A DNA stretch of 57,433 nucleotides from Methanosaeta sp. PtaU1.Bin112 (GTDB lineage Archaea; Halobacteriota; Methanosarcinia; Methanotrichales; Methanotrichaceae). This document shows, piece by piece, positions 55,344 to 57,433 of this stretch; position 1 is the first letter of the stretch, and each line of letters opens with the position of its first letter. The stretch lies in NCBI GenBank assembly GCA_002067705.1, contig MVRL01000095.1, positions 1 through 57,433 of the forward strand. Direction: 5' to 3'. The notes under the pieces are model-generated. The model was given only the letters and a program-made list of their open reading frames with translations. It had not been told where the DNA came from and ran no database searches. The position numbers were made by a program, and so were the translations under genes.

Positions 55344-55603
55344 AAGACATCGACGGTTTGACCTGTTGTGAGCGGCAATCCTTCTGAAAAACTCATTCCC
55401 AAGGCGAACGTACCGAGAAACTGGCCGAAACATCGATGACCGATTAGCGAACATCAGTAACACAGCGCTTCTGCCTGCCCAAGACCTAGCCACAGAGAGC
55501 GGAGATAAAGACCGGAGTTCATTTTGATCTGCGATGGATAGCAGCAAAGAAGCTATCTAGCCTCAGTTCATAGTTGATACTTTGATGCGCAGAATAGGCG
55601 GTA

Positions 55604-55771
55604 TTATGCCAATAAATTCCTAATTTTCTCTAGCGATCTATTTGCCATATCTATCCCCAATGCTTCAGGATCCGTGATCTCCTCACGTTTTTGTTCCTCA
55701 TATCGTTTCGGAAAATAGAGTTTTTCAAATTCATCCCTAGATCGGATCATTGATCTATTGGATTTCTTCAT
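55604..55771 (-). CDS. Small helical partner of the Ntn-hydrolase homologue
   Basis: 55 residues, charged and mostly helical (RDEFEKLYFPKRYEEQKREE, then DMANRSLEKIRNLL). The ATG at 55771 is chosen because GGGAGGTG (55780-55787) lies eight bases before it, inside the 3' end of the upstream gene; an outer Met at 55789 is less likely. It overlaps the hydrolase gene by 17 bases, so it is translated with it. No family recognised; adaptor, inhibitor or regulator are guesses. Confidence 0.6.
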   Translation of the reverse strand: MKKSNRSMIRSRDEFEKLYFPKRYEEQKREEITDPEALGIDMANRSLEKIRNLLA

Positions 55772-57074
55772 CGTCCTTGCACCTCCCATAGTAGTTCTCT
55801 CTGAATTGTGGATTTAATTCTCCTTCGAAATAGTGCTTTCTCTTAACCCATATAAATCCATCTCCCTTGGAAATTATGGCAACATCTATTGGTCCACCTA
55901 CGGTTTCACTCACTGGACTTACCCGTCTCTTGAAAGAGGTCAAATTTACAAGAGATTCGGCCATTTTCGCCAATTCATCTTTCGGCAATCCGGATACCAC
56001 ATTTATAACAGAATTAGTATAATTATTTCTCCTATATTCATCTAATCTATTTGAAAGGTCATTAAGCAATGAGGCGCTTGCATCTCTAAGCTTCATTTCA
56101 AGCTGTTGTTTTTCTTGCTCAGAATATCCTTCGATGTTGTCAACAATTATTGAGGGGTATTTATCAAATATTTTAGAAATAAGACTATCTTTTACCGATT
56201 TGTATTTAGGATCAACTCCTTCCATAAACGCCATTACCATCTCGCTTTGAGCAAAAGGAATGATCGAAGCACCCATTTGGTAAGAAATCTTATTATTATG
56301 AATTATTTTGTATTTAACCTTATTATTAATAATCAATTCCAATCGATACGACATCAAAACGGGAAAAATATCATTATCACCGAAACCAGCAATAACAATC
56401 CCAGTATTTGTCGGCCCCTCCAACTCTCTAGAAAATTTTGATAAACACGAACATGCCATGTATTTCAGTTGATCTCTATGTTTTTTAGATAAAGGCAATT
56501 TCTCAAAAATAACACCAATTAGTTCATCAAAAACAGAACTATATTTTTCCAATACCTCATTTTCAAAATCATCTGGGATATCAGGAATCATTTCAGCTTT
56601 TTCCCAAATTGATCGTTGCTGTTTAAATATTTCAGTAATTATTTGATTAATACCACGTTTATTTAATTTCCCAAATTCTTTTATTTTAGACTCGACTTCA
56701 TCTAAAAGTTTATTGTTAACATATATAAAATAACTAGCAAGCCACTCTTTCATGAAGGATTCCTGCATAGATTCGGGAAAAAGATTATCACCATTATCTA
56801 TAAAATTCATAAAATCTCTGGCATAGTCCCCCAATTCAGGAAAAGAAGTTCTACATAGTTTGCTCCGATAAATTTTTATTATTGTTTCCCAAGGTACGCC
56901 CATAAAAGAAGCGGCTCCATAAATCATTATCCCAACAGGGTGGTATTTAGATAAGGTAAATATTTTATTTGCCGACGGAAAAATCTTAGGTATGCTCCCT
57001 GTTGTCATCGTGACAGCACTATCTGCGGCAAGTGCAATAGCTTCCTTGTTCATTAATGCTATTTCTGCAGTCAT
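55755..57074 (-). CDS. Proteasome-like Ntn-hydrolase homologue (AT-rich gene)
   Basis: 439 residues. The N-terminus starts MTAEIALMNKEAIALAADSA, then KIFPSANKIFTLS and VGIMIYGAASFMG. This is the order of strands S1-S2, the Lys33-like loop and helix entry in proteasome beta/HslV. Thr2 would be the nucleophile after Met removal and Asp18 the Asp17-like residue. A helical insert (about 75-220) separates the second half (TGIVIAGFGDND, SYQMGASI) and a C-terminal VGGPIDVAIISKGDGF. Proteasome beta subunits have about 200 residues, so this is an unusual long form. AT-rich codons set it apart from its neighbours, so transfer is likely. No ATPase is adjacent. Confidence 0.6.
   Translation of the reverse strand: MTAEIALMNKEAIALAADSAVTMTTGSIPKIFPSANKIFTLSKYHPVGIMIYGAASFMGVPWETIIKIYRSKLCRTSFPELGDYARDFMNFIDNGDNLFPESMQESFMKEWLASYFIYVNNKLLDEVESKIKEFGKLNKRGINQIITEIFKQQRSIWEKAEMIPDIPDDFENEVLEKYSSVFDELIGVIFEKLPLSKKHRDQLKYMACSCLSKFSRELEGPTNTGIVIAGFGDNDIFPVLMSYRLELIINNKVKYKIIHNNKISYQMGASIIPFAQSEMVMAFMEGVDPKYKSVKDSLISKIFDKYPSIIVDNIEGYSEQEKQQLEMKLRDASASLLNDLSNRLDEYRRNNYTNSVINVVSGLPKDELAKMAESLVNLTSFKRRVSPVSETVGGPIDVAIISKGDGFIWVKRKHYFEGELNPQFRENYYGRCKDDEEIQ
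55780..55787 (-). promoter_or_regulatory. Shine-Dalgarno site of the small partner gene
   Basis: Minus-strand GGGAGGTG within the last codons of the hydrolase, eight bases before the ATG at 55771. Confidence 0.6.
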
Positions 57075-57094: not shown

Positions 57095-57103
57095 TTTATA
57101 TAT
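57095..57103 (-). promoter_or_regulatory. TATA box of the Ntn-hydrolase gene
   Basis: Minus-strand ATATATAAA is centred about 25 bases before the ATG at 57074, so the mRNA is probably leaderless. Confidence 0.5.
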
Positions 57104-57370
57104 TTGCATGACTCACTTGTTGAAAAAGCTTTCGGGATAATGAGCTTTGGACGAAAAGTCCATTTTGCAGAGGACTTTAAATGTATCTCGGTCTTTAAGC
57201 GCAATGCCTTTAACAGGCAAAGCTTTTTACTGAATCGTGCAGGGTCACCCTAACGCTCACCTGCAATCCCGATCGACCGCACCACAGTCGCCCAACCAGT
57301 CCTTATCCCTCTTAGCATGCAGGCGCTCCGGCAATCTTGTCCGACTAAATGCATGCAGCTAGTGCCATTT

Positions 57371-57397
57371 CATAGAAAGTTCACCTGATTTTCTATG
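57371..57397. repeat. Short inverted repeat near the window end
   Basis: CATAGAAA and TTTCTATG make exact eight-base arms 11 bases apart. It may be a terminator, an operator or the end of a mobile element; the adjoining gene is not visible. Confidence 0.35.
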
Positions 57398-57433
57398 GAC
57401 TTCACAATTTTATGTCCACGATTTATATTTCTC

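What the first reader, a model, noticed from the sequence alone, without database searches (positions are those of the whole stretch)
55604..57074. Proteasome-like Ntn-hydrolase with a coupled 55-residue partner: candidate undescribed system
The 439-residue product shows proteasome beta/HslV-type order at its N-terminus (Thr right after Met, AADS at the Asp17 position, a Lys-rich loop, then VGIMIYGAASFMG). A long helical insert interrupts the fold before GFGDND and a terminal VGGPID. The gene is AT-rich unlike its neighbours, has its own TATA box, and is followed by a small gene whose Shine-Dalgarno site lies inside it. No ATPase or proteasome gene is adjacent. It could be a self-contained protease or amidase system with a dedicated regulator. 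The nucleophile and function are inferred.
Basis: partly seen in the sequence, partly recalled or inferred. Interest (0 to 1): 0.78.

Follow-up and report, generated by a model that had tools for sequence, protein, structure and literature searches.

The report
Proteasome-like enzyme with small partner
An archaeal genome carries a horizontally acquired two-gene cassette, a proteasome-fold enzyme from an already catalogued but uncharacterised family (PMI-4) plus a fast-evolving ~55-residue partner; the partner appears undescribed, travels with the enzyme across bacteria, archaea, prophages and phage satellites, and points to a mobile effector/regulator pair of still unknown function.

Summary
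A 439-aa gene (57074-55755) has the proteasome fold (AlphaFold pLDDT 90; best solved-structure matches are proteasome subunits, then Anbu). Thr2, Asp18 and Lys37, at the places of Thr1/Asp17/Lys33, are invariant in 65 sequences. It is not an undescribed protein: it fits PMI-4 of Fuchs, Alva and Lupas 2021 (PMC8665760) and is phrog_5990.

What appears undescribed is the partner. A 35-130 aa ORF starts near the enzyme's stop codon in 124 of 126 relatives, is under purifying selection, often ends at a terminator, and three searches with partner sequences alone hit 23 viral loci, all with the enzyme just upstream. Fuchs et al. reported no gene context.

The pair travels as mobile cargo: 179 IMG/VR contigs, lambdoid E. 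coli prophages (opposite strand, beside the Q antiterminator), Streptococcus satellites and plasmids; patchy and often broken in archaea; 34% G+C here beside a ~60% G+C gene.

Best guess: a mobile effector-regulator pair, perhaps superinfection exclusion or anti-phage defence, the partner restraining or aiming the protease. The pairing is shown; catalysis and function are inferred. No partner docking could be predicted.

The parts
55755..57074 (-). PMI-4 type proteasome-like gene, 439 aa, Thr2 directly after the start Met
   Evidence: ORF; phrog_5990 E 6.9e-123; AlphaFold model and Foldseek matches to proteasome subunits and Anbu; invariant T2, D18, K37
55604..55771 (-). partner gene, 55 aa, overlapping the end of the large gene by 17 nt (in-frame ATG at 55789 would give 61 aa)
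   Evidence: ORF; homologues directly downstream of the enzyme in archaea and bacteria
55780..55786 (-). Shine-Dalgarno site GGAGGTG of the partner gene, inside the large gene
   Evidence: sequence read directly
57095..57102 (-). TATA-box-like TATATAAA upstream of the large gene
   Evidence: sequence read directly; not tested for function
55378..55603 (.). left edge of the cassette: homology to congeneric genomes stops at about 55377, just after the adenine deaminase gene
   Evidence: blastn against relatives
57359..57433 (.). repeat at the contig end, with three other copies in the genome; probably an insertion-sequence end where the assembly broke

Best explanation
A mobile two-gene cassette. 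Gene 1 is a PMI-4 type proteasome-like threonine hydrolase without propeptide: the start codon directly precedes the catalytic Thr, so methionine aminopeptidase would expose the nucleophile (inferred). Two helical inserts sit where they would hinder proteasome-like rings (argued by Fuchs et al.), so it probably acts on selected proteins as a small assembly, not as a barrel. Gene 2 encodes a dedicated, fast-evolving ~55-aa protein, translated from an overlapping or adjacent start, which probably binds the enzyme and restrains, assembles or aims it. Prophages, phage satellites, plasmids and chromosomal islands carry the pair as accessory cargo; most likely it protects the carrier, for example by cleaving a host or phage protein on infection. 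Shown: fold, conserved triad, pairing, partner as a real gene, mobile and patchy distribution. Inferred: catalysis, restraint or aiming by the partner, anti-phage role. The confidence below is for the whole reading; the pairing itself I hold at about 0.95 and hydrolase activity at about 0.75.
For: Fold and triad. Pairing: small ORF in 124/126 relatives; stricter limits 117/126 against 157/612 control genes; pN below pS in all 98 pairs; terminator-like hairpin after it in 59/122 against 26/610 random segments; reverse searches with three partners gave 23 viral loci, all with the enzyme upstream. Mobile cargo: 179 IMG/VR contigs, 13 phage or satellite records, 10 plasmids; opposite strand beside antiterminator Q in lambdoid E. 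coli prophages, between a methylase and the holin in a Providencia phage, distal end of Streptococcus satellites. Patchy and decaying: 20/192 genomes of the archaeal class, many copies broken. Foreign composition here.
Against: No activity, binding or phage phenotype is known. PADLOC has no model that matches, and the excess of defence genes nearby comes mostly from one restriction locus. The position of proteasome Ser169 is an invariant Val, and the likely oxyanion Gly47 position is Asn in 20 of 55, so catalysis may differ. A read-through model of enzyme plus partner showed no confident partner fold beyond a C-terminal helix. In the Porphyromonas phage the pair lies among structural genes, which also allows a phage-serving role.
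Confidence: 0.42

Rival explanations
1. Enzyme and dedicated substrate: the PMI-4 protein processes or ligates its own small partner, as connectase acts as a specific protein ligase, releasing or attaching a peptide. The partner is a substrate, not a regulator.
For: Tight one-to-one linkage. Connectase is a proteasome homologue that is a specific ligase (PMC8665760). The N-terminal part of the partner is predicted without stable structure in the one case modelled.
Against: No conserved cleavage-like site could be seen across partners; most partners cannot be aligned with each other. Connectase has its insert at another site (S3/S4) than PMI-4 (PMC8665760).
Confidence: 0.2
2. Addiction pair: the enzyme is a toxic protease and the partner its antidote, kept because loss of the element harms the cell; no direct role against phages.
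For: Two overlapping genes, small fast-evolving second gene, carriage on plasmids, prophages and satellites; several broken enzyme genes sit beside an intact partner ORF, and a lone partner exists in G181.
Against: Toxicity is untested. The partner is about eight times shorter, so its survival beside broken enzymes is weak evidence. In E. coli the pair is rare (9 of 5,426 genomes) and confined to one prophage position.
Confidence: 0.15
3. Protein quality control: a general, ATP-independent clearance protease with the partner as assembly factor or adaptor, spread by transfer but serving the host.
For: Fuchs et al. suggest such roles for proteasome homologues without an unfoldase (PMC8665760). 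Many carriers have the pair alone among chromosomal genes, e.g. L204.
Against: Patchy presence (20/192, 7/348 and 9/5,426 genomes), frequent decay and prophage-cargo placement do not fit a housekeeping role.
Confidence: 0.13

Closest known systems
PMI-4 (proteasome homolog with multiple insertions 4), Fuchs, Alva and Lupas 2021, PMC8665760; phrog_5990
   Same: Proteasome fold, Thr1/Asp17/Lys33 equivalents, no propeptide, helical inserts after H1/H2 and between H3/H4, spread over many bacterial phyla, Euryarchaeota and phages
   Different: The paper reports no gene context; here a dedicated downstream partner gene and a cargo setting are found. Sequence clustering with the published set could not be run
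Anbu
   Same: Proteasome-like subunit without propeptide that does not form a closed barrel; among the best structural matches
   Different: No long inserts at the two PMI-4 sites; not described as prophage cargo with a small partner gene
Proteasome beta subunit and HslV
   Same: Fold and catalytic residues
   Different: Barrels that work with ATPases; this gene has no general ATPase neighbour, has large inserts, and Val in place of Ser169
Connectase
   Same: Proteasome-fold enzyme outside the barrel proteases, found in methanogenic archaea (PMC8665760)
   Different: Insert at S3/S4 and no H1/H2; no small downstream partner gene is mentioned in that paper

Membership tests
PMI-4 (Fuchs et al. 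2021) | Proteasome-like fold | tested here: met
   AlphaFold pLDDT 89.7, pTM 0.86; best Foldseek matches in PDB are proteasome subunits (E 3.4e-5) and Anbu
PMI-4 (Fuchs et al. 2021) | Catalytic Thr1/Ser1, Asp17, Lys33 | tested here: met
   Thr2, Asp18 and Lys37 invariant in 65 sequences; aligned with 3c91
PMI-4 (Fuchs et al. 2021) | Oxyanion-hole Gly47 | tested here: inconclusive
   Likely equivalent residue 53 is Gly in 33, Asn in 20, Asp or Ser in 2 of 55
PMI-4 (Fuchs et al. 2021) | Long insertion after helices H1/H2 | tested here: met
   Helices between about 101 and 212, after H62-73 and H81-93
PMI-4 (Fuchs et al. 2021) | Insertion between H3 and H4 | tested here: met
   Helices 289-312 and 319-361 between H278-285 and H365-385
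PMI-4 (Fuchs et al. 2021) | Found in many bacterial phyla, Euryarchaeota and phages (unlike PMI-3) | tested here: met
PMI-4 (Fuchs et al. 2021) | Clusters with the published PMI-4 sequences | not testable with these tools
   Representative HDY66466.1 and the Mendeley alignments are not held
Proteasome subunit / HslV (Pfam PF00227) | Reaches the curated Pfam cut-off | tested here: not met
   No PF00227 match for the window protein; 6 of 55 members match, best E 0.0012. The proteasome subunits of this genome are elsewhere
Proteasome subunit / HslV | Dedicated ATPase partner | tested here: not met
   Cdc48 neighbour is ancestral here; among all loci only L058/L204 has another one
Toxin-antitoxin module | Two linked genes, one small | tested here: met
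Toxin-antitoxin module | Toxicity neutralised by the partner | not testable with these tools
   Needs expression experiments
Anti-phage defence system | Protection against phage | not testable with these tools
   Needs plaque assays
Anti-phage defence system | Neighbours enriched in defence genes | tested here: inconclusive
   Neighbours include Avs1a, LmuA, NsnA, SoFic and type I RM models, but the 201 against 5 matched models is inflated by one RM locus, L066

The most novel reading that the evidence does not exclude
A new kind of mobile immunity or superinfection-exclusion module in which a proteasome-fold threonine protease, working without an ATPase or barrel, is switched by a dedicated, rapidly diversifying small protein; one design shared by archaea, many bacterial phyla, prophages and phage satellites.
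Probability: 0.33. Interest if true: 0.82.

Novelty: new variant of a known kind. Interest (0 to 1): 0.57.

Why it matters
PMI-4 is the most numerous of the 22 new proteasome homologues listed in 2021, and its authors found no context that hinted at a function. A near-universal partner gene and repeated placement as prophage and satellite cargo give a first handle: what to co-express, what to co-purify, and which phenotype to test first. The partner is not always annotated (it is missing in the E. coli prophages), which may explain why it was overlooked. If the protection reading is right, proteasome-fold proteases would join the effectors of conflicts between mobile elements.

Tried and rejected
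Association with ATPases: a Cdc48-like gene is near PMI-4 here (ancestral) and, as a divergent paralogue, in the one genome seen as L058/L204; rejected. Association with ubiquitin-like operons: adjacent in several rhizobial plasmids and in L060, but in 348 genomes of the family of G217 the enzyme occurs in 7 and the E1 protein in 16, with no genome in common, and five further loci show no E1; kept only as a lead. Enrichment of defence genes: at first impressive (201 matched models against 5), then traced largely to one restriction locus; not claimed. Complex prediction: frame-shift fusions of the window pair are not accepted by the structure tool (not pursued further); a stop-read-through reading of L017 was accepted and left most of the partner without confident structure. 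Natural fusions: none found; tails after the conserved motif are at most 54 residues. Pseudogene asymmetry (partner kept, enzyme broken): seen, but the length difference explains much of it. Literature searches found no paper linking PMI-type homologues to phage defence. Hits of the window partner inside ~170-aa proteins at E 0.002-0.009 lie in rubrerythrin-like genes (by eye) and look like chance.

Full report
1. Observation. Both genes lie on the minus strand of the window, which is the full contig C95 (57,433 bases) of a 3.4-Mb, 200-contig genome; the closest relatives of the protein are archaeal, Methanosarcinales and the like. The large ORF runs 57074-55755 (439 aa), the small one 55771-55604 (55 aa), overlapping by 17 nt, with a GGAGGTG site eight bases before the small ATG. 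Their G+C is 34-36%, against about 60% in the adenine deaminase gene next door. Homology to congeneric genomes runs up to about 55377 and stops; in G019 the same place holds an ATPase gene and in G020 a TPR-type gene, both named by eye. The contig ends in a 75-base repeat with three other copies in the genome, probably an insertion-sequence end. The cassette therefore looks acquired, at a variable site.

2. What the large protein is. Pfam, NCBIfam and PADLOC give no significant match; PHROGs gives phrog_5990, unknown function, over the whole length. One scan of genome contigs kept 80 relatives in archaea and many bacterial phyla. In 65 aligned sequences Thr2, Asp18, Ser19, Lys37, Phe39 and a C-terminal W.KRK.YF pattern stand out, with Thr2, Asp18 and Lys37 in all. 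The start codon directly precedes Thr2. A profile of 55 members aligns its start and its VGGPIDVAVI stretch with archaeal proteasome beta (3c91), putting Thr2, Asp18 and Lys37 on Thr1, residue 17 and Lys33; the match is weak by sequence (E 0.01). The AlphaFold model (pLDDT 89.7, pTM 0.86) matches proteasome subunits best (E 3.4e-5), then Anbu. Helices from 101 to 212 follow H1/H2, and helices from 289 to 361 lie between H3 and H4. Two departures from the proteasome: Val392, invariant, where 3c91 has Ser169, and Gly or Asn at the likely Gly47 position.

3. Comparison with the literature. Fuchs, Alva and Lupas (PMC8665760) described 22 new proteasome homologues. Among their PMI types, long inserts at both these sites are given for PMI-3 and PMI-4; only PMI-4 is widespread and found in phages (501 sequences at 90% identity). 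The testable features fit PMI-4; direct clustering with their sequences could not be done here. They state that they found no genomic contexts or co-occurrence suggesting a function. No later paper found in the held library ties the family to prophages or defence. That search is limited, since most subscription papers and bioRxiv are missing.

4. The partner gene. Among 126 distinct relatives with enough downstream sequence, 124 have a 35-130 aa ORF starting within 80 nt of the enzyme's stop. Other genes in the same loci show this in 335 of 612; with stricter limits the figures are 117/126 against 157/612. It is a real gene: in all 98 pairs compared, non-synonymous change is below synonymous (median pN/pS 0.41; enzyme 0.28), and partner identity tracks enzyme identity (rho 0.82; pairs are not independent). 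A terminator-like hairpin follows it in 59/122 cases against 26/610 random segments. In E. coli strain H3 the 49-aa partner has a ribosome-binding site, is not annotated, and is followed at once by a hairpin and T-run. An HMM search joins 25 partners from archaea, Planctomycetes, Elusimicrobia, gammaproteobacteria and others, with a motif F.S..EF...YFPK and a C-terminal A..SL.KI stretch; the rest are too diverged to be joined by sequence. Searching the other way, three viral-type partners found 14, 5 and 4 viral loci, and all 23 have the enzyme upstream. In the archaeal class the stronger hits of the window's partner are mostly beside enzyme genes or their remains; lone or remnant copies occur in G181 and G158.

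5. Mobility. Relatives lie in 179 IMG/VR contigs, 13 phage or satellite records and 10 plasmids. In nine E. coli genomes of 5,426, with (nearly) identical sequence, the pair lies beside the Q antiterminator; in the two records read it is in a lambdoid prophage on the strand opposite to its neighbours. Providencia phage PSTRCR_117lys has it between a DNA methylase and the holin; a Stenotrophomonas phage has it opposite to the lysis genes; Streptococcus satellites carry it towards the distal end. This is the pattern of cargo ('moron') genes. In the archaeal class 20 of 192 genomes have a match, and many copies are broken by stops, frameshifts or deletion. In the family of G217 it is 7 of 348.

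6. How it may work. Shown: fold, conserved triad, dedicated partner, mobile carriage. Inferred: the initiator Met is removed, exposing Thr; the inserts keep the protein out of a sealed barrel, as the 2021 authors argued; the partner binds the enzyme and restrains, assembles or aims it; the pair protects its carrier. A fast-changing small protein beside a conserved enzyme, on prophages, fits an effector with a co-adapted regulator. An enzyme with its own substrate, an addiction pair and a quality-control protease remain open. The AlphaFold run on a read-through of enzyme plus partner from L017 gave only a C-terminal helix with fair confidence; no interface could be read from it.

7. Checks that lowered the claim. 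The apparent excess of defence genes around the pair came mostly from one restriction locus. Adjacency to ubiquitin-like operons in rhizobia is striking in single records, but the two do not co-occur across 348 genomes. The nearby Cdc48 gene is ancestral.

8. Verdict. The large protein is a member of a catalogued but uncharacterised family; the two-gene module and its cargo setting are, as far as I could search, new. Function stays open and is directly testable.

Noticed in passing
L264, L266, L267, L268 (rhizobial plasmids); L060:8514-11434: The enzyme lies next to a bacterial ubiquitin-like operon (multiubiquitin protein, ThiF/E1, DUF6527, in some a ClpP-like protein). No co-occurrence across 348 genomes of one family, so perhaps only shared islands.
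   Followed up: partly
L240:10310-10459 (E. coli strain H3): The 49-aa partner gene is not annotated in RefSeq although it has a ribosome-binding site and a terminator directly after it.
   Followed up: yes
L303:5495-5686 (G181): A lone partner gene without the enzyme, between a MazF/PemK-like gene pair and a SEC-C-like protein (named by eye).
   Followed up: partly
L078, L079, L080: Shorter relatives (about 270-290 aa, without the first long insert) share Thr2/Asp18/Lys37 and the C-terminal motif and also have a small ORF at their end; perhaps other PMI types.
   Followed up: partly
L031 (JAHREI010000004.1): Record titled Bacillus subtilis SK6B4, but its genome (G209) is drawn as a member of the same family as a Mesorhizobium genome (G217); the title looks wrong.
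   Followed up: no
L204:1547-3736 (G036): A second, divergent Cdc48-like ATPase (54% identity) with an HTH gene lies just downstream of the enzyme-partner pair in one Methanothrix genome only.
   Followed up: partly
window 55344-55603 and the same place in L197 and L199: The site downstream of the adenine deaminase gene holds different accessory genes in different genomes of the genus, suggesting an integration hotspot.
   Followed up: partly
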